Virus record (IMG/VR): IMGVR_UViG_3300036770_006038
Span: 1-29,531 of that record
DNA from: a virus
Reading direction: 5' to 3' (one strand)
DNA length: 29,531 nt
The notes beneath the pieces were generated by a model. The model was not told where the DNA came from and did not search any database. It saw only the letters and a list, made by a program, of their open reading frames with translations. Positions 3,001 through 20,638 of the stretch are shown piece after piece (positions within the stretch are counted from its first letter, which is position 1; each line of letters begins with the position of its first letter). The translations under genes were made by a program, and so were the position numbers.

Positions 3001-5170
3001 CACCACCTTTGAGCTGATACAGTGCTTTTTGCACTTCATATTCTTTTTCACCTTTTGCCAGGCGAATTTGCAAAAGCTCAGTTTCTTTTTTCAGGCTATC
3101 GAGGGATTCTTTGTCTGTAACCAGTGCCTGTTTCTTTTCAATCAGCTGCAGTTCACGCTGCAGCGCTGCAAGGGCAGCAGGATTGGCACCGGTAAACTGC
3201 AGCAGTTTCTTTTGCATATCCGCAGTTTGCTGGCCTTTACTCAGGCGCAGGTCCAGCAGCTTCAGTTCTTCCTTCAGCTGCGTCAGGTAAGTGTCGGCAT
3301 TTAAATTGGCGGCGGCCGTTTTGGCATCGATTGCAAATTGTTTAATGGCTGCAGCGGCATTCGCCGGTAGGGTTGTGGCATCCACGAACTGGGCTTTAAA
3401 CAGTTCCAGGTCAATGCCATTCAGGGCACGGCCCTGGGCGTCGACGGCCTGAGCTGACAACATTTGGGTGTTGTAAAGCTTAAGCATTTCTTCAGCTAAT
3501 TTATTGGTGCTGGCCGAGTTATCTATTAGCTTAGAGCTATACGCATCAAGGCCAGGCAATCCGGCGTCAAAATTCTTGTTCAGCCCCTCGATAACCGCGT
3601 TGAGTTCAGCTGTGCGACTTTTTAATTCTTCTTGACGTTTTTTTAGATCGGCCAGCTGCTGTGTGTCAGCAATTGGCATTGAAGCGCCCACAGTACCAAC
3701 ACCAAAGACTGGTCTATTTCTGGCATTTTTAAGTTTTGCTTCAACTTCGGCTACTTGTGCGGCAACCTGCTGCAGTTCTGTAACAGTATCTTGATATAAG
3801 CCAGCTTTGCGTTTGGCGCTCATACGTTCGAATGATGCTGTCAATTCATCACTCTTCACTTTGGCTTTTTCTGCGGCCTCTTCATACGCAAACCATGCGC
3901 CTGTTAAGACCCCTGCAACGCCAATGACTAAACCGATTGGGCCTAATAAAGCTCGTTGTGCGATCGCCAGAGCGTTAGATGCCACTGTGGCAGTGCCCGC
4001 AGTAGTTGTTACAAGGCCAAGTGCTGAGACCTGCCGCACGGCCGCGGTGTTGACCAGCAGCATTTCAATCAGCACTATCGCTTGTTTCTTTGCAAATCCA
4101 GCAAAGGCCGCGACACCAATAACTCCGATCGCATAAGCCAGCAGTTGGGCTGTCTTTATCGAAGCCTGAAGAGCTGGACTTAGTTCCTCAATACTTCCAG
4201 TTCTAAAACTATCAAGGATCTGAGACACGCTTACTAAGGATTCAGCCCATGCTTTGGATAGCTCAAGAGTTTTGTCGAGGTGTGCCACAGTTGCAGCAAA
4301 ACTGTTTTCGACCATGACATTAGCTCGTGCCATATTGACTGGAAGCTCGCCGAACTGTGCTCGGATCTCAGGCAGTTGTACTAAAATCGACTTCAGTACA
4401 TCTTCCGATAGCAGCTTGCCTTCCAGTACCAAGGCCCGCATTTCGCCAAAACCCAGCTCTTTGGTTGATTTGCCAATATCGTCCATACCGCGACCAATGC
4501 GTGACGCAAGCTCGGGGATATTCTCAAGGATAGAGTTCCACTCTTCAGCCCGGATTATGCCGCCAGATAAGCCCTGGCTGAGCTGCATCAAACCGTTATC
4601 CATGGCCTGCATGGACGATCCACCGATAACCCCCAGCATTTGCACCGCATCGGTGAGGCCCAGCATTTCGGCATTGGTGGCTTTGAGGTCTTTACGGCTG
4701 GTTGCCATGCGCTGGAACAAGTCAACAGATGCGCTGAGTGCTACCCCGTTTTTCTGTGAGATGTCGAACATTTCAGCCGACACCTGGTTGTAGTCACGGG
4801 TTTCGCGGGTTGCCGTTTTAATACGTTGCTGCAGGCCATCGAATTCTGACGCGACAGTGGCAAAGCCTTTCACAGCATTGAATGTTTCAAACGCAGCATA
4901 AAGAGCAGCTGTTACCCCTATCATCGAGCGTAGAGAGCCAGCAAGGCTTACAGCAGAACTTTCGTTTTCCTGCAAAGCGGTGCTGAGCTGTTTGCTGCTA
5001 TTGGCAGCTTTGTTCATGCCTTTGGCTGATTCGTTGCCAGCGGTATCGAGCTGCTTTAACGACTTGGTAGCCGTTGTTGTACTTTGAGTAATGCCATTGA
5101 TGTCTTTGACAACGACTTGACCACCGGCAACGGCAAAGCGGATGGCAATGTTCATATCGTTGTTATTCAT
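1..5170 (-). CDS. Phage tail tape measure protein (C-terminus beyond left edge)
   Basis: About 1,723 codons are open from the ATG at 5170 to the window edge, so the gene is partial at its 3' end. The product sets tail length and is threaded inside the tail tube. Residues ~1-270 look like the conserved tape-measure N-terminal domain (TIGR02675-type). Hydrophobic stretches follow at ~330-430 and in a Gly/Ala-rich central region. The rest is largely helical and repetitive: a ~61-residue unit occurs twice around residues 630-745 and a 93-residue unit occurs twice around 1430-1530. AGGAG lies 12 nt before the ATG, overlapping the end of the upstream chaperone ORF; an in-frame ATG at 5155 is an alternative start. 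Position directly after the chaperone pair, together with size, makes the assignment secure. Confidence 0.93.
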   Translation of the reverse strand, partial: MNNNDMNIAIRFAVAGGQVVVKDINGITQSTTTATKSLKQLDTAGNESAKGMNKAANSSKQLSTALQENESSAVSLAGSLRSMIGVTAALYAAFETFNAVKGFATVASEFDGLQQRIKTATRETRDYNQVSAEMFDISQKNGVALSASVDLFQRMATSRKDLKATNAEMLGLTDAVQMLGVIGGSSMQAMDNGLMQLSQGLSGGIIRAEEWNSILENIPELASRIGRGMDDIGKSTKELGFGEMRALVLEGKLLSEDVLKSILVQLPEIRAQFGELPVNMARANVMVENSFAATVAHLDKTLELSKAWAESLVSVSQILDSFRTGSIEELSPALQASIKTAQLLAYAIGVIGVAAFAGFAKKQAIVLIEMLLVNTAAVRQVSALGLVTTTAGTATVASNALAIAQRALLGPIGLVIGVAGVLTGAWFAYEEAAEKAKVKSDELTASFERMSAKRKAGLYQDTVTELQQVAAQVAEVEAKLKNARNRPVFGVGTVGASMPIADTQQLADLKKRQEELKSRTAELNAVIEGLNKNFDAGLPGLDAYSSKLIDNSASTNKLAEEMLKLYNTQMLSAQAVDAQGRALNGIDLELFKAQFVDATTLPANAAAAIKQFAIDAKTAAANLNADTYLTQLKEELKLLDLRLSKGQQTADMQKKLLQFTGANPAALAALQRELQLIEKKQALVTDKESLDSLKKETELLQIRLAKGEKEYEVQKALYQLKGGDPAVIAEIENQIRAQQKLKDQIALTEQISSGAFDKMLDDMTAMNGTATNIGDVLVQAFGSVAQQLDAMTESQLQYNEKVKELAGEKAKLNILDKNSAVYAKGKAAVDEKEAKLKNDYYQSQMGHFASLTGAASKMFSEQSKGRQVLHKLEVTFAAIETALALKKAAANALTAISNQGGGDPYSAFARIAAMAAIMAGLGIFSGSAAGGVSAEDRQKTQGTGTVLGDDSAKSGSIANALGRIEDLELDQYAELRSINGSIRELSAGIKNLAVNLVASYGKFNESNYPGELGKEYNLQLGSGLASVVGGGVIGLVADKLLGGLVGGLTNKLLGGLFGSKKTELVDSGLSFAAQELGDIISSGLMNASVYDVIKTTKKKLFGLSKSSSESTEYRAIDNALRTEFARIFSHMGKSVTEAVNLLGLETNKTLESFVINLPALSFKDLKGDEIEKELQAMFSQQGDLMVQYLVPGIAEFQKIGEGLYDTLIRVAQEQAVFNSALDNLGLQLSRFAGVTKAIELEVAQSIIELMGGIEQFQSATAEYFAEFYSEQEQLAAITKSAAAQFASLGIAMPTSRDGFKDLVDSLDLTTEAGQRMFAALMALVPAMDQYYDQQERQARELASFSKSVGDELAKLDMTDLEKNLFDLKAWYDAQIKEAAELGADTGLLEILYDRKRAALIAAELEKATADINNTFKQLVDSIQAASAGIGNAILDIRRQGAGWDESAYQNGQVKQLRGQLGTGDITAQIKAIQNLQGAIVSRYQADISANNLLMQQAQTALDSLNASWGELTSSLASVRSSISAAILDIRRQGSGWNEVGYQKGNISDLRAKLGVGSVLEQINVVGALQQAIVDRYNAELAANQQLQQAAESRYEADLAAYNALRDAARQLLSAADALLLSDYSPALMGEQFSQAQKQFTQLLVRAKGGDMDAMRDLQSAGSSYLDVAKNYYASGSSEYSAIFKEVQAAYRSFSGMANGSDNSVPRPTQQYYSASISMQSDTI

Positions 5171-5178
5171 AAATGGCG

Positions 5179-5547
5179 TTAACTCCTGTTTTGCTCTGCC
5201 TGGTAATTCAGTACTGTCTTTTCGATAACCTGCAGGCCGTTCCAGATCCGGTCTTTTAGTTCGACCGCTAAGCCCTGATAACCAGGCATCTGATTGGCTC
5301 TGACTTCAATGGCCGGATAGTTCAGGCCGACTCTGCAACCTGCCATGCCGGCATACACCCACTGGGTTTGCACCCGGAAAAACAACTCCACGATGTACTG
5401 ATTGCAGGGTTGAACTTCCGGTGCCTGGGCTTTTTGTGCTGCGTAGAGCTGCACAACTTCAGGAGGGGCGCCGGCTGCTTCCAGCGATTCCGCCAGGCGT
5501 TTGGGGCTGGCGCTGCCTCCCGAAACCCACCAATGGGCTATTTCTTC
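5179..5547 (-). CDS. Tail assembly chaperone, -1 frameshift extension (T domain)
   Basis: This frame has no good start codon of its own; only a GTG at 5454 without a clear Shine-Dalgarno sequence is available. It stays open back through the slippery site at 5547-5553. Read as a -1 frameshift product it adds 122 residues after residue 137 of the upstream chaperone, giving a 259-residue fusion. It corresponds to the lambda G-T arrangement, in which the rarer fusion links the tape measure protein to tail tube subunits during assembly. The joined sequence continues smoothly (…KNL then EEIAHWWVSGG…). It ends just before the tape measure gene. Independent initiation at 5454 would give a 91-residue protein and is the alternative. 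Confidence 0.8.
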   Translation of the reverse strand, partial: EEIAHWWVSGGSASPKRLAESLEAAGAPPEVVQLYAAQKAQAPEVQPCNQYIVELFFRVQTQWVYAGMAGCRVGLNYPAIEVRANQMPGYQGLAVELKDRIWNGLQVIEKTVLNYQAEQNRS

Positions 5548-8802: not shown

Positions 8803-9732
8803 TTACGCGACGTTTTGCAGCAAGTAGCCAGCAGTGATACCGCTGAGGACCGGTGCGCGTTCGTAGGTCACTGGATAGACCCAGCTCTTGGCTGAGTTGT
8901 CGTAATAGGCTTCTTCAACCAGCGGGTTACCATCGAGTGTGTAGGTGTAACCAAATGACGGCTGCTCAGCGTTAACATCGCCACTAACATCGGCCGAATA
9001 GGCCATCACCACATCAGTACCCCAGACGTCACTGAAAACACCCTGAGCATCTGCTACCACGGCTTTACCCACTTCCACGGTTTCGAGATCCCAAAGTGCA
9101 GCCAGCATTTCGGCAGTGACTGATTGAGCACTGGTGTATTTAAAATGCTCTTTGATGTTCGGGTTGTTTTTAGCCGCAGCAAAGGCTTTGGCTGACAACA
9201 CAACGCGGTTTGGATACATCCCGATGCTGGCGCGGACCGCTTCTTTACCTGTTTCGATGTCCGTCGTCGGGTTGTTAGCTGCGTTAGTCCATTTGGCGGC
9301 GGTCAAATCCACCTTTTGGCTAGCCGGATACAGTGCTGGGTCGCGGGCCAGCTTGGCCTGCTCATATTCGACAGACAACAGCATTGAACTCATGACGTTA
9401 TTCACGGCGCGCTGGCCGAGTTTCACGCCAGGTACCGCAGCTTCGCCGACATGCTCACGCGGAACCACACCTTCCAGGCTGTGGCTGGCCAGTGCATATG
9501 GCTTACCAAGGTAGCCAAATTGAACCCGTTTGGTGTTCGTGCCTGGTGCGCGCTGGCTGTTGTATAAAATGAAAGACTCTTTGCCGAATTCAATCACCTG
9601 GCCGCCACGTTGTGGCACACCTACACGCGGGAACAGCAGGTGCCCAACCAACTTTTGCTGACTGTAGCCTTGGGCGTGGGTTGATAAGACCGGGTCAATA
9701 ACCCGGACAGCTGCATTGTTCATCTGAGACAT
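8803..9732 (-). CDS. Major capsid protein
   Basis: 309 residues located directly after the protease/scaffold and decoration genes. The sequence has the look of an HK97-fold capsid subunit: an early GKESFILYNSQRAPGTNTKR segment, a helix with LSVEYEQAKLARDPALYP, and a C-terminal region with NPLVEEAYYDNSAKSWVYPV. It is not close to Mu gpT by eye and looks more like the capsid type of B3/D3112-like siphophages. AAGGA precedes the ATG at 9732. Gene order makes the role nearly certain. Confidence 0.9.
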   Translation of the reverse strand: MSQMNNAAVRVIDPVLSTHAQGYSQQKLVGHLLFPRVGVPQRGGQVIEFGKESFILYNSQRAPGTNTKRVQFGYLGKPYALASHSLEGVVPREHVGEAAVPGVKLGQRAVNNVMSSMLLSVEYEQAKLARDPALYPASQKVDLTAAKWTNAANNPTTDIETGKEAVRASIGMYPNRVVLSAKAFAAAKNNPNIKEHFKYTSAQSVTAEMLAALWDLETVEVGKAVVADAQGVFSDVWGTDVVMAYSADVSGDVNAEQPSFGYTYTLDGNPLVEEAYYDNSAKSWVYPVTYERAPVLSGITAGYLLQNVA

Positions 9733-13366: not shown

Positions 13367-14843
13367 GTTGTTCCCGCACCTCATTACGGCCGGCTAAATG
13401 CGCAGCACTGTTTGCCTGGGCCATCGCTGCAGCAAAGCCATCGAGTGACAGGTCCGGGTATAACTCCAGCAACTGGTCCTGCAGCTGCTCTAACGACTCA
13501 GCTTTGTCAGCCAGCGCCTTTACCTGGTTAATCCATTCTGTAAGTACTGGCTCTGTATTGTTGCGGGCCTGCTCCAGCATTTGGCTGGGTGGCTGGCCAC
13601 CGGTCGTGATAGCTGCAGCAAAGCTGGCTGGCTCATTGGAAGGTTGGCCTAGCTGTGCCGGTACCGGCTCGGGCTGCTTTTCTTCAAAGCCATCGCCATA
13701 GGTCTGCTGGATATATTGCAGGGTTGGTTTGTAGCCCAGTGAAAGGATTTTGGTATCCCTCTCAGCACGACTGCCCAAATCTTCGGGCGGCTCGATATTG
13801 CGGTAAACCCTTGGCAGTTCAGCGTCTGGGAAATTCCACTGCACCAACCATTTCACAATGCTGCGGTTAAATGACTCACAGACCAGATCCGCGTCGGCCT
13901 TTATCAGGTCCAGCCGGACGTCGCCCTGCAGGTCATCATTGCCAAGCCGGCCCGGTGTGCCTTGTGTACTGGCAGTCTGGCCCAGTATTACTTTGGCAAT
14001 GGCTGCATCCATCCGGTCATACAGCGCCACATAATCGGCGGTACCAGAGCGCGCCGCTTCAATCAGTTCAATTTCCATCCCCTGCGGGATAGAAATGCCG
14101 CTGTCCGTTGCGATCGCAGACAGAGCCTGCAGCAACTTATTGCGTTCGTCCGCTGTGGCATTAGGGCCATAGGTTCCCTTCGCGGTGGGTTGGCCGAATT
14201 TTTCCAGAAACAGCAGCCAGTACTTCAGGCCATTGCGCTTGAAGAAAGCCGGCCAGTACAACCAGTGACCAAGGCCGGTTCCGTATGGGTCATCGTCGTG
14301 ATCCGAACCGGTTGCAAAGGCCCAAAATTTTTGGTCGGGCATCAGTTCGCCCAGTGGCTGTTGTGGGGTTTTCATCCGAAGCCGGCCAAGGCCATCAAAG
14401 CCAAAGCGGCGACGGTCCCGGACTTTAATATTGTCGAGCGCAATATAAGCGCCATCGCGGACATACATGGCTTCACTGACAGCAAAGCCATAGTAGACGC
14501 CATATAACATCCGGTCTGTGACGCGGTCCCAGCCAACATTGTTTAACTGATCACGGATAAACTCAGCCGCCTTTTTATCCCGGCGACTGGTACCGCCGGC
14601 GTCTACCTGCCAGTTTTTGCCAATAACCGCTAAGCGGCGCTGACCAAAACAGGCAGCAACCTGATCATCGCGCAGGACTTCGGAATACACCCTGTAGTCA
14701 CCGCCACCCCGAATTTTCAGCACCGGATCACGGACAGGCTGCACAGCCAAAGGGTCGACATAGCCAATGGTGATGTCGCGACCATCGGCGGTAGTCGCCA
14801 CTTCTTGCATGAGCGGGGCTGTTTTATTGGTCGTGTCTGCCAT
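13353..14843 (-). CDS. Portal protein (DUF935, Mu gp29-like)
   Basis: 496 residues. The DUF935/gp29 family forms the dodecameric portal ring through which DNA is packaged. Visible family features are the early LKIRGGGDYRVYSEVLRDDQVAACFGQRR segment, the NVGWDRVTDRMLYGVYYGFAVSEAMY region, FWAFATGSDHDDDPYGTGLGHWLYWPAFFKRNGLKYWLLFLEKFGQP, and VILGQTASTQGTPG. The ATG at 14843 overlaps the terminase stop (TAATG), with AGAGG upstream. Gene order (terminase, portal, F, G) is as in Mu. Confidence 0.95.
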   Translation of the reverse strand: MADTTNKTAPLMQEVATTADGRDITIGYVDPLAVQPVRDPVLKIRGGGDYRVYSEVLRDDQVAACFGQRRLAVIGKNWQVDAGGTSRRDKKAAEFIRDQLNNVGWDRVTDRMLYGVYYGFAVSEAMYVRDGAYIALDNIKVRDRRRFGFDGLGRLRMKTPQQPLGELMPDQKFWAFATGSDHDDDPYGTGLGHWLYWPAFFKRNGLKYWLLFLEKFGQPTAKGTYGPNATADERNKLLQALSAIATDSGISIPQGMEIELIEAARSGTADYVALYDRMDAAIAKVILGQTASTQGTPGRLGNDDLQGDVRLDLIKADADLVCESFNRSIVKWLVQWNFPDAELPRVYRNIEPPEDLGSRAERDTKILSLGYKPTLQYIQQTYGDGFEEKQPEPVPAQLGQPSNEPASFAAAITTGGQPPSQMLEQARNNTEPVLTEWINQVKALADKAESLEQLQDQLLELYPDLSLDGFAAAMAQANSAAHLAGRNEVREQHGQQ

Positions 14844-16303
14844 TAGAAACCTCTGAAGTCGTTGCGGCCGGCGATAGTTCCAAAGCCGGTGTCGGTGATA
14901 ATTACACTGTTGTTCTCACCCAGGGCGCTGAGGGATGGGCGGCGGCCAGTAGATTGAAAGTCGAGTGGCGAAGCTGGTGAGGATGCCGCATGCACAGCAA
15001 GACCCAATGCCCAAAAATGGTCGGCGTGGCCATCGACTGTGCGCTCTGCCGCAAAGCGGATATTGCCGGCTGCGGTTACTTGCTTGGTCACCTGGCGAAG
15101 GTCAGCGCGGATCTTGGGGTCATGAGGAATACGCAGCAAGCGGTCTTCCATTTTGCCGCGTATTGGGTAAGCCAGCGCTTCCTTCACTTTTGGTGTGAAG
15201 GTCACAGCCTCAACCCGGTCTTTGCCAAAGTAGTCTTGGGCATCATCGGCCCAGCCAATCCCTAAGCCTGTGGCATCAATGCAGATGCGGTCGCAGCGCT
15301 GCAGCCAGGGCCACATGATGGCCTCCTGCTCTGACTTACGCATATTCTGCATCCGCTCAATGTGGCGGGTGTACAGCACATCCCCCAGCAGCTCGACAAC
15401 CCACAGCACGGTTAAGTCTTTTTTGCGGCCGATGTCGATACCGGCGTACAGCCGGCCACCTTCTAGCGCAGTCCAGTTCGCTGTGGATGGATATTCAGCA
15501 GAGGCGATGAGGTCGTATTCCAGGAACGCGACGTCATCATCCGCCGGATTGCACATAAACTCTTGCTGAAAACTTTCCTCGTCAGCGCAGCCAGCCCGAA
15601 CGTAATCAAAATAGCGGGCTTCATCCATGTCCTGGCGTTCATCGTCAGCTGGCAACATCTGCTGCAGCTTGAACAAAAAGCCCTGATCCAGCGCATCTTG
15701 CAAGGTGACACGATGCAGGCTGATGCCTTTGGGGTTGCCGTGTTCGCGTACCTCACGGATAAGCTGATTAAAAAAATTATGACTGCCCCGGTGGGTTGAT
15801 ATTAATTCGAGGCTACCGCCCCAGGTGATCCCCGGATAAGCAATGGCCCATAACTGCCGGTTGTCTTTGTTGAGGGCAAATTCATCGAGTATCCGGCCGC
15901 CACGCTTACCAGCTTGCGCATCCGGGTTAGAACTCATGGAATGGATACGCCGGCCACTGGCAAACTCCAGCACATAGGCAGAGATTTTGTTTTTGGCGTC
16001 AATAACGATTTCGCCCAAATCCCTGGCGGCCATATTCATAATGCCCGCCCACATCTTGCAGTCTTCAATAAAAAGCTTGGCCTGCAAATCGTCCCGGCTG
16101 CTGACCCATTGGTCATGCCGCGCGCCTTGCGCTGCAGTGCGTTCATCTGCGGCATAAGCGGTCGACCACGACAGGCCGATTTGGCGGGCTTTTTCCATTC
16201 CCTTCAGACGGCTGTTATCCATGATCCATTTAGACTGGTACGGCAGAAAAATACCTTCCGGGTCTGCAGGGATGCAGCGGGCATTGCCTTTGAATCTGCT
16301 CAT
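14843..16303 (-). CDS. Terminase large subunit (Mu gp28-like)
   Basis: 486 residues. The N-terminal ATPase has a divergent Walker A at KARQIGLSWS (about residues 38-47) and an acidic Walker B-like ILDEFAL. The C-terminal RNase H-type nuclease has YAGIDIGRKKD, ICIDATGLGIG and DGHADHFWALGLA, supplying the metal-binding acids. It cuts and packages phage DNA; in Mu-like phages packaging starts at the phage end and takes host DNA at the far end. The start overlaps the end of the small subunit gene (ATGA). Confidence 0.95.
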   Translation of the reverse strand: MSRFKGNARCIPADPEGIFLPYQSKWIMDNSRLKGMEKARQIGLSWSTAYAADERTAAQGARHDQWVSSRDDLQAKLFIEDCKMWAGIMNMAARDLGEIVIDAKNKISAYVLEFASGRRIHSMSSNPDAQAGKRGGRILDEFALNKDNRQLWAIAYPGITWGGSLELISTHRGSHNFFNQLIREVREHGNPKGISLHRVTLQDALDQGFLFKLQQMLPADDERQDMDEARYFDYVRAGCADEESFQQEFMCNPADDDVAFLEYDLIASAEYPSTANWTALEGGRLYAGIDIGRKKDLTVLWVVELLGDVLYTRHIERMQNMRKSEQEAIMWPWLQRCDRICIDATGLGIGWADDAQDYFGKDRVEAVTFTPKVKEALAYPIRGKMEDRLLRIPHDPKIRADLRQVTKQVTAAGNIRFAAERTVDGHADHFWALGLAVHAASSPASPLDFQSTGRRPSLSALGENNSVIITDTGFGTIAGRNDFRGF

Positions 16304-16875
16304 GAGCGGATCCCCAGCGCTTCGCGGATAGCATTGCGGGTTTCTTCGGTCACGCCACCCTTTGTTTCCATCGCTGCCAGGCGGGCTTTTTGCTCTTCGA
16401 GCAATTGCTTGCGCCCGCGTTCTTCCGCTTCAGCCTGGTACTTTTTCAACGTGACCGAACTGCGGGTTAAGGTTGCGATATTTTTGGCCGCATCAGCAAG
16501 TAATCCAACACGCTCAGCTGGCGACATTTCTTCGTTCCCAGCCTCTTGCAGCGCCATTATTGATTCAAACAGCTCTGACTGGATCATTGCGGTCAAGGCT
16601 TCAGAGCGTGCATCTTCTTTGTCACCGGCCTGATCACGAATGATTTTGGCTGCTTCGGTACTGGCGCGGATGGCAGCCAGGCGCCGTTCTAGCTTTTGAC
16701 CATAACGCCCAACAGCACTGCGGCTTGGCAAGTCGCCAGACGCAGCTTCGTCAGGAAAGCTCTTTTGCAAGTCTGAGATCAGTTCATCCAGAGTCATCGT
16801 GCCTTTGGCAAGCTGACCCTGAATGTACGATTTAATGACGTCTGGCAGACGGTCCAACGAAGATTTGCGGCCCAT
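16300..16875 (-). CDS. Terminase small subunit (DUF3486, Mu gp27-like)
   Basis: 191 residues from the ATG at 16875, with GGAG 7 nt upstream; the frame opens further, to 16950, but without a ribosome site. The start MGRKSSLDRLPDVIKSYIQGQL with the following MTLDELISDLQ and SRSAVGRYGQKLE is the DUF3486 signature, a helix-turn-helix DNA-binding part followed by long helices. It would recognise the phage end and recruit the large subunit. It overlaps the large subunit gene by 4 nt. Confidence 0.9.
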   Translation of the reverse strand: MGRKSSLDRLPDVIKSYIQGQLAKGTMTLDELISDLQKSFPDEAASGDLPSRSAVGRYGQKLERRLAAIRASTEAAKIIRDQAGDKEDARSEALTAMIQSELFESIMALQEAGNEEMSPAERVGLLADAAKNIATLTRSSVTLKKYQAEAEERGRKQLLEEQKARLAAMETKGGVTEETRNAIREALGIRS

Positions 16876-16876
16876 T

Positions 16877-17191
16877 TCAGCTCCAGTACTTAACTGGCCG
16901 GGCAATGCCTGGCGCGCAATCGACAGTGTATTCCGCAATATCTGTACCATAGCGGGTCAGCTCTGCGAACCATTTCCCAGACGGCTCCTTTCTCACCGCA
17001 ACGAGTTTGCGGTCATCGAGGTAGTCCAGTTGTAAGCGGATCTCCAATGGTGTTGCATCCGGATATTCAGACTGTGCGACGGACAAGATCGGTCCTTCGT
17101 ACGCACCTACAGGCCGGGCGTTGTTTAATGTCAGCAGGATGAGCCAGCGTAGGCTTTCGCGACGGATCTTTGCAGTGTCAATGTGAGACAT
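16877..17191 (-). CDS. Gp26-like phage protein, winged-helix type
   Basis: 104 residues. The order of helices, LEIRLQLDYLDDRKLVAVRKEPSGKWFAELTRYGTDIAE, is that of a small winged helix with a beta wing, and the protein resembles the VpaChn25_0724 family found just before DUF3486 in Mu-like phages. It may bind DNA at the packaging end or assist the terminase; no experimental role is known to me. GGAGGTAAGA is a strong ribosome site before the ATG at 17191. Confidence 0.8.
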   Translation of the reverse strand: MSHIDTAKIRRESLRWLILLTLNNARPVGAYEGPILSVAQSEYPDATPLEIRLQLDYLDDRKLVAVRKEPSGKWFAELTRYGTDIAEYTVDCAPGIARPVKYWS

Positions 17192-18828: not shown

Positions 18829-19113
18829 TTACAGCCCCAGAGTCAGGCCCAGCACACAGGCAATAACAACCAGGGCGCGCCTGAGCATTGCAAGGCCGCG
18901 GGGGATTAAATCCTCGCCTGATTCCAAATAGGAATGGGGACGGTCATAGGGGAATAGAGCGCGGTCAATCCAGTAACCAACCACTGAACCCGTGGTTACC
19001 ATAGACAATTTGTACAAGATAACAGGCAGTTCTTTCGGGCTGATAAAGCTGACGAAAACCAGAAGCAAGATGCTGATCAGCATCCAGGTAAAACAGCGGG
19101 GTAACAGTTGCAT
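18829..19113 (-). CDS. Holin (Mu-type)
   Basis: 94 residues with three hydrophobic segments at about 8-25, 33-49 and 76-94. The central LPVILYKLSMVTTGSVVGYWIDRALFPYDRP run is typical of the holin family found first in Mu-like lysis cassettes. It would form the inner membrane lesion that triggers lysis. GAGG stands 8 nt before the ATG at 19113. It is the first gene of the late operon, directly after the long non-coding gap. Confidence 0.85.
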   Translation of the reverse strand: MQLLPRCFTWMLISILLLVFVSFISPKELPVILYKLSMVTTGSVVGYWIDRALFPYDRPHSYLESGEDLIPRGLAMLRRALVVIACVLGLTLGL

Positions 19114-19184
19114 TTTGCATCCTCAGAGGTGATGGAAAGATCACTACCGAAGATGCCTTTTATTTGGCTTTTAGTAATTTGAAC

Positions 19185-19274
19185 GGGGGCAAAATATCTC
19201 GCCGCTTTAAGCTACTAAGATGCGGTTCAGGCTGCCGCTGGAGACAACGGAAGTTCGCATGCAGACCTGCCCCC
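19185..19274 (-). ncRNA. Candidate structured RNA in the gap before the holin gene
   Basis: The gap between holin and the Cys-rich protein (19114-19296) contains a 90-nt foldable block. A GGGGGCA/TGCCCCC closing pair spans 19274-19268 and 19191-19185. Inside are a stem CAGG-CTGC / GCAG-CCTG with one bulged base (19269-19261 with 19235-19228), a nested hairpin CCGTT/AGCGG (19250-19246 with 19239-19235), and a CCGC/GCGG arm (19225-19222 with 19205-19202). The nested hairpin pairs through U·G only on the minus strand, so I assign that strand. It could be a late-operon leader or small RNA. No family is recognised. Confidence 0.42.
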
Positions 19275-19296
19275 GCGCGAGGGTAAGAGCGCATTA

Positions 19297-19815
19297 TTAA
19301 AAAGCACTGAAGTCCCTTCGCTGACCTGTCGTCATGACCGAGAACTTATCATGATCATCAGGGTGACGAAACTTCACACTGGAGCTGCACGCATGACAAC
19401 AAAAGACCCGTTCGACACCAATGTAACCATTCGATTGCAAGATCGACTTGACGTTATCCTTATAGCAATTTGCACAAAGGTAATGGACTGGTTCGCCCGG
19501 CCGCTGATGAGCTTGGGCGTTACGATAGACAAAAATGCCAGACGAAAGCTCACAAAGTTCGTAGCGCTTCTTTTCTTCGCCCCAGGCGATAAGTTGTTTG
19601 TTTTCTGCTGCGAGCGTATTCAGAGTGCTTTGGACCGACGCCAACGCAGACTGGAGCAATATCACATCGTGTTGCACCGAAATAATACTGTTAAATAGCT
19701 CCATTGCTTGCTGCCTGGTTTGAATGTTTTCTTGCAGATCAGCTAATTCCTTTACGCCCTTGGCAACAGTTTTAATCGTTTCAATGGCACCACTTAGTGT
19801 AGGGAATTCCATCAT
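19297..19815 (-). CDS. Coiled-coil protein with Cys-rich zinc-ribbon-like end
   Basis: 172 residues in the repressor transcript. Residues ~1-80 are predicted long helices (KELADLQENIQTRQQAMELF, then a second heptad-like stretch). The second half has CANC and CHAC pairs about 25 residues apart, likely a zinc ribbon. Similar proteins occur as orphan genes in prophages, but I know no function. The ATG overlaps the upstream stop. Being co-transcribed with the repressor it is probably expressed in the lysogen, so an exclusion, defence or regulatory role is possible but not shown. Confidence 0.75.
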   Translation of the reverse strand: MMEFPTLSGAIETIKTVAKGVKELADLQENIQTRQQAMELFNSIISVQHDVILLQSALASVQSTLNTLAAENKQLIAWGEEKKRYELCELSSGIFVYRNAQAHQRPGEPVHYLCANCYKDNVKSILQSNGYIGVERVFCCHACSSSVKFRHPDDHDKFSVMTTGQRRDFSAF

Positions 19816-20123
19816 TCCTTCTCACTTGTTGTCGAAGTTCTTAAGGTGTTTTGGGCAATAGTCCTGATGTTCGAATTGATCGCAGCAAGCACTTGGCAAA
19901 ATGCCATAAAAATCAGGCCTGAGAAGATAATACCGATACCCCAATTAATCATTACTTGGTTTGGCTCAGAACCATAATCTCCGCGATCAGCAGACCCCGA
20001 TACAATAAAATTCAATCCGCCAAGAATACTGACCACCAGATAAATCCATGCGACCATTTTTAAAAATTCACTTGAACCTTCGCCTGGCAAATCTATTTGT
20101 TTTTTTTCGATTGGTTCTGACAT
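19812..20123 (-). CDS. Small two-helix membrane protein in the repressor operon
   Basis: 103 residues with two membrane helices at about 23-42 (MVAWIYLVVSILGGLNFIVSG) and 60-82 (GIGIIFSGLIFMAFCQVLAAI), separated by a charged loop. The N- and C-terminal tails are polar, both probably cytoplasmic. AAGGAATC precedes the ATG at 20123, and the gene follows the repressor after 12 nt. No family is recognised. A two-TM protein co-expressed with a prophage repressor fits superinfection exclusion or lysogenic conversion, inferred from context alone. Confidence 0.75.
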   Translation of the reverse strand: MSEPIEKKQIDLPGEGSSEFLKMVAWIYLVVSILGGLNFIVSGSADRGDYGSEPNQVMINWGIGIIFSGLIFMAFCQVLAAINSNIRTIAQNTLRTSTTSEKE

Positions 20124-20135
20124 TTTTGATTCCTT

Positions 20136-20591
20136 TTACTCGTCGCCACTTACTTTTTGAGTGGTTGCCTGTTGCGCGAACGCAGCGCTCGTTGTGCTGA
20201 TAGCCCTTTTCCCTTCAGGCAGGCTATTGCGGTAGTTGTCCAGCAGCGCTGCTTCATCGGGTTTTAAGATGCTTTGCGAGACGATCGATTCCTGAACGGC
20301 TAAAGCATCTTCACGATTGCCGGTGATAGCCTCGACCGCCATACCAGCCTCTGTTGCTGTTTTAACAGCAGCCAAAGCCAGATGGACTTTTGTTCGAGTT
20401 CCCGTGACAAGATAAAGAATATCTACGCCATGGTTGGCAATTGCGGAGATGTATGCCGAATCAGGATTCCTCTCGCCTTTTTCATAGTTCAATTGAGCTT
20501 GTTTTTTAACTCCGCCCAACGCTCCGAAATCGGTCTGGTTAAACCCCAAACGTTCCCTTTCTTCTTTTAATCGATCACCAAAGGTACTCAT
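20136..20591 (-). CDS. XRE-family phage repressor
   Basis: 151 residues from the ATG at 20591; the frame opens to a TTG at 20621, which lies inside the operator. Residues ~4-65 are a helix-turn-helix (FGDRLKEERERLGFNQTDFG, GGVKKQAQLNYEKGERNPDS). The rest is helical with no LexA-type Ser-Lys peptidase, so induction is unlikely to be by self-cleavage. It faces Ner across a palindromic operator. Another copy of the half-site overlaps its own start region (20584-20590), suggesting autoregulation. Confidence 0.87.
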   Translation of the reverse strand: MSTFGDRLKEERERLGFNQTDFGALGGVKKQAQLNYEKGERNPDSAYISAIANHGVDILYLVTGTRTKVHLALAAVKTATEAGMAVEAITGNREDALAVQESIVSQSILKPDEAALLDNYRNSLPEGKRAISTTSAAFAQQATTQKVSGDE

Positions 20592-20605: not shown

Positions 20606-20638
20606 TTGACAAGGTACTCAATTGAGTACTATCTTATC
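20606..20638. promoter_or_regulatory. Divergent early/repressor promoters with central operator
   Basis: Plus strand: TTGACA (20606-20611), 18 bp, then TATCTT (20630-20635), driving ner and the transposition genes. Between them is the perfect 16-bp palindrome 20614-20629 (GTACTCAATTGAGTAC). A further half-site GTACTCA is at 20584-20590. Minus strand: TTGCGG (20661-20656), 17 bp, GATAAG (20638-20633), a weaker candidate for the repressor. The two -10 elements overlap, so binding at the palindrome should block the early promoter directly. Confidence 0.8.

What the first reader, a model, noticed from the sequence alone, without database searches (positions are those of the whole stretch)
19297..20123. 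Two unknown genes co-transcribed with the repressor
A two-TM protein and a coiled-coil protein with paired Cys motifs follow the repressor with coupled starts. Genes in this position are expressed in the lysogen and often give superinfection exclusion or anti-phage defence. A membrane partner plus a zinc/coiled-coil partner looks like a sensor-effector pair.
Basis: inference. Interest (0 to 1): 0.66.

Follow-up and report, generated by a model that had tools for sequence, protein, structure and literature searches.

The report
Prophage Rip1-like anti-phage gene beside repressor
A B3-like transposable phage carries, just behind its repressor gene, a relative of the recently described Rip1 protein, which caps the ring-shaped small terminase of invading phages and is proposed to open a membrane pore, so a bacterium carrying this dormant phage is probably protected from other phages.

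Summary
In detail: a 103-aa two-TM gene (19812-20123, -) and a 172-aa helical/four-Cys gene (19297-19815, -) follow the repressor with a 12-bp gap and a 4-bp overlap. The 172-aa protein is not an unknown. It is a homologue of Rip1 ('ring interacting pore 1') of phage HK446, whose cryo-EM structure with the T6 small terminase is PDB 9oox. Evidence: phmmer E 6.8e-18, family profile E 1.9e-28, fold match Z 12.0, four invariant cysteines, amphipathic N-terminal helix. Homologues include D3112 orf25, DMS3 gp25, LPB1 ORF25 and HK620 hkaP. In related Mu-like phages the gene usually lies antisense between the terminase genes (16 of 65 loci); here it lies in the repressor unit, in a slot shown by RNA-seq in phage Fc02 to be transcribed in the lysogen. 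The defence reading is therefore well supported. The 'membrane sensor + zinc effector pair' is not: most Rip1 genes have no membrane partner, two relatives carry the two-TM gene without Rip1, and 13 of 14 sampled slots hold some membrane or signal-peptide ORF. Best reading: a lysogen-expressed Rip1-type ring sensor and pore, plus an independent two-TM cargo gene of unknown role.

The parts
19297..19815 (-). orf172: Rip1 ('ring interacting pore 1') homologue, PHROG 1244, HkaP / D3112 orf25 family
   Evidence: PHROG 1244 E 1.7e-31; phmmer to PDB 9oox_L E 6.8e-18; profile E 1.9e-28; Foldseek 9oox_M prob 1.00, TMt 0.85; VIA Z 12.0
19735..19803 (-). N-terminal amphipathic helix of orf172 (residues 5-27), proposed membrane/pore part
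   Evidence: AlphaFold helix 5-27; hydrophobic moment 0.54, not reached in 300 shuffles; the aligned 9oox chain starts at residue 41, so the corresponding part is probably unresolved
19570..19725 (-). long second helix of orf172 (residues 31-82)
   Evidence: AlphaFold model; within the part matching 9oox residues 41-163
19369..19563 (-). C-terminal beta / four-Cys (predicted zinc) domain of orf172 (residues 85-149; C114, C117, C140, C143)
   Evidence: strands in the model; the four Cys are identical in all 30 aligned homologues
19812..20123 (-). orf103: small two-TM protein of unknown function, coupled to orf172 by a 4-bp overlap
   Evidence: TM segments 23-41 and 63-81; helices 15-45 and 56-102; Ka/Ks about 0.12 against L015; no clear family
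20136..20591 (-). phage repressor (HTH_3), ATG start at 20591 (a TTG start at 20621 is also possible)
   Evidence: Pfam HTH_3 E 3.2e-6 and PHROG regulators
20614..20629 (.). 16-bp palindrome GTACTCAATTGAGTAC over the early promoter-like site; candidate repressor operator
   Evidence: promoter-like TTGACA-18-TATCTT at 20606-20635 +
19198..19848 (-). approximate extent of the orf172 cassette absent from relative L015
   Evidence: blastn homology to L015 stops at 19849 and resumes at 19197
19114..19197 (-). shared leader in front of the holin (...TTTTGCCCCCGTTCAAATTACT...), probable late-operon start
   Evidence: conserved in L018, L020, L022
18829..19113 (-). holin, first gene of the lysis/packaging cluster; right-hand border of the cargo slot
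   Evidence: Pfam Holin_2-3 E 1.8e-24
14843..16950 (-). small and large terminase genes (16300-16950, 14843-16303) overlapping by 4 bp: the alternative Rip1/Tab insertion site, empty in this phage
   Evidence: PHROG 426 terminase small subunit E 2.7e-46 and large-subunit PHROGs; Mu Gp27 E 1e-34

Best explanation
orf172 is a Rip1-type prophage defence protein. Proposed mechanism: (1) the repressor transcription unit keeps it made in the lysogen; (2) it is harmless until another phage expresses late genes and builds a ring-shaped oligomer (small terminase in 9oox, possibly other rings); (3) Rip1 subunits line up on that ring through their helical and four-Cys parts; (4) the clustered N-terminal amphipathic helices insert in the inner membrane as a pore, ending the infection before progeny are made. 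On induction the repressor unit is shut off before this phage makes its own rings, which would avoid self-targeting. orf103 is a separate small membrane protein carried in the same cargo slot; its role is unknown and it is not needed for the Rip1 mechanism in general. Shown here: homology, fold, invariant cysteines, amphipathic helix, slot and operon layout. Taken from published work on relatives: small-terminase binding by HK446 Rip1, and lysogen transcription of this slot in Fc02. Inferred: steps 2-4 and self-avoidance for this protein.
For: phmmer of orf172 against PDB 9oox_L, 'ring interacting pore 1 (Rip1)': E 6.8e-18 over residues 7-149; 18-member profile E 1.9e-28. AlphaFold model of orf172 against 9oox_M: Foldseek E 3.7e-8, prob 1.00, TMt 0.85; VIA Z 12.0 over residues 28-156, next row 8.4. 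9oox is titled as HK446 Rip1 with the T6 small terminase; the HK446 gene is a PHROG 1244 member at a sieB-like position. A conference report describes prophage-encoded RIP1 blocking incoming phages, with 12 RIP1 capping an 11-subunit terminase and a suggested pore mechanism (PMC12908700). Four Cys invariant in 30 homologues. Amphipathic N-terminal helix. Homologues lie in lysogeny/moron positions: HK620 hkaP, annotated 'putative superinfection exclusion protein', and the antisense terminase site in D3112, DMS3, LPB1 and 16 of 65 Mu-like loci. That is the site used by the defence gene tab in JBD26 (PMC10884400). In B3-like Fc02 the repressor and the accessory gene e4 between it and the holin are on the lysogen transcript (PMC9936078); the window phage is B3-like (MuA 58.8% to B3; same gene order).
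Against: Identity to HK446 Rip1 is only about 30%, and the C-terminal tail is unrelated. Ring binding, pore formation and protection were not tested for this protein. The primary Rip1 paper was not in the library, so the mechanism rests on a PDB title, the depositors' name and a conference summary. No intrinsic terminator was found between orf172 and the holin. The presence of orf103 in the same unit is not explained by this model.
Confidence: 0.76

Rival explanations
1. A true two-gene system: the two-TM protein orf103 anchors, restrains or completes the pore of the Rip1-like protein, as a Rex-like membrane/sensor pair expressed beside the repressor.
For: Translational coupling with a 4-bp overlap; both genes stay together, nearly unchanged, in L014/L022 although the repressor's DNA-binding domain differs; an unrelated two-TM gene precedes the Rip1 homologue behind the repressor of L112.
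Against: orf103 occurs without orf172 in L015/L016; most Rip1-family genes examined have no coupled membrane gene; 13 of 14 sampled slots hold some membrane or signal-peptide ORF, so the pairing is expected from the slot; the L112 two-TM protein shows no significant similarity to orf103 (E 0.32).
Confidence: 0.12
2. The Rip1-like protein binds the small terminase (or another ring) and simply blocks packaging, without forming a pore; a packaging inhibitor in the sense of the Listeria TerI report.
For: Direct capping of a small terminase by the homologue (9oox); many copies are encoded beside the small terminase gene; TerI is reported to disable the small terminase (PMC12908700).
Against: The depositors call the protein a pore; the N-terminal helix is amphipathic and well conserved among close relatives, and the part of 9oox corresponding to it is not in the aligned chain, as expected for a membrane-inserting part.
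Confidence: 0.12
3. Both genes are unrelated cargo: orf103 is a separate superinfection-exclusion membrane protein acting at the cell surface or on DNA entry, and orf172 is a degenerate or repurposed Rip1.
For: Superinfection-exclusion proteins are often small membrane proteins (general knowledge); orf103 is under purifying selection on its own.
Against: orf172 keeps all family-invariant residues and full length.
Confidence: 0.1

Closest known systems
Rip1 of Escherichia phage HK446 (PDB 9oox; gene HK446_037)
   Same: Homologous over residues 7-149 (E 6.8e-18), same predicted fold (Z 12.0), same four Cys, prophage-encoded in the lysogeny region.
   Different: About 30% identity; here the gene is in the repressor transcription unit, coupled to a two-TM gene; HK446 Rip1 is a lone gene opposing its neighbours next to N.
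HK620 HkaP; D3112 orf25, DMS3 gp25, LPB1 ORF25; VW-6B_25
   Same: Same PHROG 1244 / Rip1 family, with the same motif CxxC[YF]-x5-[ST][IV]LQ...CxxC.
   Different: hkaP lies at the sieB position of a lambdoid phage; the D3112 group and VW-6B carry it antisense just before the large terminase.
Tab of Pseudomonas phage JBD26 (PMC10884400)
   Same: Prophage-expressed anti-phage cargo in Mu-like phages, at the small/large terminase junction that Rip1 homologues use.
   Different: 83 aa, described as without similarity to proteins of known function, blocks tail assembly through the tape measure protein and has an anti-Tab partner; this window's junction is empty.
Fc02 accessory gene e4 and B3 ORF20-22 (B3-like cargo slot)
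   Same: Same slot: repressor - accessory gene(s) - holin; transcribed in the Fc02 lysogen.
   Different: Different genes; the function of e4 is unassigned.
Lambda RexAB
   Same: Genes downstream of the repressor on its transcript, membrane protein plus partner (analogy from general knowledge).
   Different: No Rex model appeared for either protein in Pfam, NCBIfam, PHROGs or PADLOC searches.

Membership tests
Rip1 (ring interacting pore 1) / PHROG 1244 | Sequence homology to HK446 Rip1 | tested here: met
   phmmer E 6.8e-18, profile E 1.9e-28; PHROG 1244 E 1.7e-31
Rip1 (ring interacting pore 1) / PHROG 1244 | Same fold: helical N part and beta/four-Cys C domain | tested here: met
   Foldseek prob 1.00, TMt 0.85; VIA Z 12.0, 122 residues, rmsd 3.2
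Rip1 (ring interacting pore 1) / PHROG 1244 | Two CxxC pairs, the metal site of the C-terminal domain | tested here: met
   C114, C117, C140, C143 invariant in 30 homologues; metal binding itself not testable
Rip1 (ring interacting pore 1) / PHROG 1244 | Amphipathic N-terminal helix able to form a pore | tested here: inconclusive
   Helix 5-27 strongly amphipathic (moment 0.54, 0 of 300 shuffles); pore formation not testable
Rip1 (ring interacting pore 1) / PHROG 1244 | Binds ring oligomers such as the small terminase of other phages | not testable with these tools
   Needs biochemistry; shown for HK446 Rip1 with T6 small terminase (9oox)
Rip1 (ring interacting pore 1) / PHROG 1244 | Expressed from the prophage and protective | not testable with these tools
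   Indirect: the same slot is transcribed in the Fc02 lysogen
Tab | About 83-aa protein at the small/large terminase junction with an anti-Tab neighbour | tested here: not met
   172 aa, in the repressor unit; terminase genes overlap by 4 bp
SieB / RexA-RexB | Match to the family profile | tested here: inconclusive
   No such model among matches to Pfam, PHROGs, NCBIfam or PADLOC for orf172 or orf103; absence of a profile match does not exclude remote kinship
Two-component membrane sensor + effector defence pair | Both genes conserved together | tested here: not met
   orf103 without orf172 in L015/L016; most Rip1 genes without a coupled membrane gene

The most novel reading that the evidence does not exclude
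In B3-like phages Rip1 has been built into the repressor operon together with a dedicated two-TM protein that anchors or gates it, a two-component version of the ring-sensing pore; the L112 phage, with an unrelated two-TM protein at the same position, would be an independent case.
Probability: 0.12. Interest if true: 0.65.

Novelty: new member of a known kind. Interest (0 to 1): 0.45.

Why it matters
It turns two 'unknown' genes into one testable defence gene, and it ties hypothetical proteins of well-used model phages (D3112 orf25, DMS3 gp25, LPB1 ORF25, HK620 hkaP) to the new Rip1 mechanism. It also shows two genomic solutions for carrying such a gene: antisense beside the small terminase, or inside the repressor unit. 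In both, lytic growth could silence the gene before the phage makes its own rings (inference). Among close relatives the N-terminal part is more conserved than the four-Cys domain (mean identity 75% against 55%), as would be expected if the latter adapts to changing targets.

Tried and rejected
Profile searches of Pfam, NCBIfam and PADLOC gave no informative match for either protein. orf103 had no match in the phage or plasmid collections, none in the genome collection, only a weak PHROG hit (phrog_4839, E 0.002) and no significant viral fold match; its function stays open. The full family alignment was too divergent for the locus scan, so a four-member alignment was used; the genome-collection scan with it confirmed nothing. 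Literature searches for the primary Rip1 paper, phrog_1244 and hkaP function found only the conference report. I considered that the pair might be Rex-like because of position; rejected as the leading view after the L015/L016 comparison and the slot base rate. The helix-rich VIA rows below 9oox (Z 8.4 and less) are generic long-helix matches and were ignored. Comparing small terminases of Rip1-bearing and Rip1-less relatives gave no sign of a self-protection signature: L022, which carries Rip1, has a terminase closer to the Rip1-less L018/L020 than to the window.

Full report
What is there. On the - strand the window reads repressor (20136-20591/20621), orf103 (19812-20123), orf172 (19297-19815), then holin (18829-19113), lytic transglycosylase and the packaging genes; Ner, an IclR-like regulator and a MuA transposase run the other way. 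MuA is 58.8% identical to that of Pseudomonas phage B3, and the gene order is that of B3: a B3-like transposable phage. The repressor-orf103 gap is 12 bp and orf103/orf172 overlap by 4 bp, each with a Shine-Dalgarno-like sequence. Both are real genes: orf172 by homology and orf103 by purifying selection, Ka 0.106 and Ks 0.855 against L015.

What orf172 is. It matches PHROG 1244 (E 1.7e-31). Relatives are D3112 orf25, DMS3 gp25, LPB1 ORF25, VW-6B_25, HK446_037, HK620 hkaP and HK630_040. hkaP is annotated 'putative superinfection exclusion protein'. A profile of 18 family members against PDB sequences finds one strong hit, 9oox_L, 'ring interacting pore 1 (Rip1)', E 1.9e-28; orf172 alone gives E 6.8e-18 over residues 7-149. 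The AlphaFold model (pLDDT 75.8) matches 9oox by Foldseek (prob 1.00, TMt 0.85) and by VIA-align (Z 12.0, next row 8.4). 9oox is the cryo-EM structure of HK446 Rip1 with the T6 small terminase. [quoted passage not shown] The primary paper is not in the library.

Anatomy. Residues 5-27 form an amphipathic helix (moment 0.54, not reached in 300 shuffles; most family members also exceed their shuffles). Residues 31-82 form a long helix, and 85-149 a beta domain with C114, C117, C140 and C143, invariant in 30 aligned homologues. The 9oox chain aligned here runs from residue 41 to 163, so the part corresponding to the amphipathic helix is probably not resolved (inference), as expected of a flexible membrane-inserting segment. 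In 45 closely related pairs the first 84 residues average 75% identity and the four-Cys domain 55%, with the latter lower in 42 pairs. The pairs are not independent, but this fits a conserved pore part and an adapting recognition part.

Where such genes lie. In 65 related Mu-like loci with both terminase genes, a Rip1 homologue lies antisense between small and large terminase in 16; the two genes abut or overlap in 35; 14 have another gap. The same site holds the defence gene tab in JBD26, on the minus strand with its own promoter and active from the prophage (PMC10884400). In lambdoid phages the gene opposes its neighbours near N and cIII; in L125 it directly follows a CI-like repressor. The window and L014/L022 carry it in the repressor unit, and so does L112, behind an unrelated two-TM gene.

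Expression. In phage Fc02, a B3 relative, the only lysogen transcription seen was a forward transcript of about 1.9 kb containing the repressor and the accessory gene e4, which lies between repressor and holin; the holin cluster comes on late after induction (PMC9936078). orf103 and orf172 occupy that slot, so transcription in the lysogen is likely. A conserved leader in front of the holin probably starts the late operon. No intrinsic terminator was recognised between orf172 and the holin.

Is it a pair? Homology between the window and L015 breaks at 19849 and resumes at 19197, so orf172 is a cassette of about 650 bp absent from L015, where an 80%-identical orf103 runs straight to the holin behind a different repressor and a TPR-like gene. 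L020 carries yet another gene (167 aa, zinc-ribbon-like start and one TM) in the slot. Among the distinct Rip1-family genes surveyed, a coupled upstream two-TM gene appears only in the window group and in L112; L116 has a 134-aa ORF with one predicted hydrophobic segment, and one further hit (L036) is an ORF antisense to the large terminase and probably spurious. Thirteen of 14 sampled slots contain at least one ORF with a predicted membrane or signal segment, so a membrane neighbour is the base rate. ORF calls in that survey are mechanical. A functional partnership is therefore not supported, though not excluded.

Verdict. The defence interpretation is right in kind and can now be made specific: a Rip1-type ring-sensing protein. 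What is shown here is homology, fold, conserved residues and context. Ring binding, pore formation and protection by this protein are inferred from the HK446 relative. orf103 remains an unknown, conserved two-TM cargo gene. It is a new member of a recently described kind, in a genomic setting (repressor unit) that differs from its usual antisense or stand-alone positions.

Noticed in passing
20405-20591 and L014:3533-3720: The repressors of the window and of L014 share their C-terminal part almost exactly but have different N-terminal HTH domains, while orf103 and orf172 downstream are about 99% identical: an apparent swap of immunity specificity with the cargo kept.
   Followed up: partly
L020:5395-5898: A 167-aa protein with an N-terminal CxxC...CxxC zinc-ribbon-like start and one TM segment occupies the repressor-holin slot in a close relative; another candidate lysogen-expressed cargo gene.
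   Followed up: no
L127:3407-3994 (B3 ORF20), L112:4415-4936, L079:4895-5296, L060:2968-3309: Genes directly behind the repressor in several B3-like phages start with similar short G/N-rich motifs (TGSNNIVAGRD, TGNGNTQV, GQVAGGDIVN, GQVAGGNIIN); the B3, L112 and L079 ones also have membrane segments. Possibly a shared cargo type.
   Followed up: no
L085:5923-6180 (-): An 85-aa ORF carries only the four-Cys C-terminal domain of the Rip1 family, without the helical part.
   Followed up: no
L124:3577-3759 and 4989-5333: Two separate partial Rip1-family ORFs in one HK446-like contig; the gene looks interrupted.
   Followed up: no
L003:5004-5510 (MF975721, VW6B_25): The Rip1 homologue of Pseudomonas phage VW-6B is annotated as 'ATP-dependent chaperone ClpB', which its sequence does not support.
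   Followed up: partly
L022:3586-4155 (-): Between the Ner and IclR-like genes of this relative lies an ORF whose best match among window proteins is MuA, absent from the window: perhaps an extra MuA-like end-binding domain.
   Followed up: no
L088, between small and large terminase (about 8866-9288): A gap of 423 bp at the terminase junction without a Rip1 homologue; 13 other loci have gaps of 97-271 bp. Possible other defence cargo at this site.
   Followed up: no
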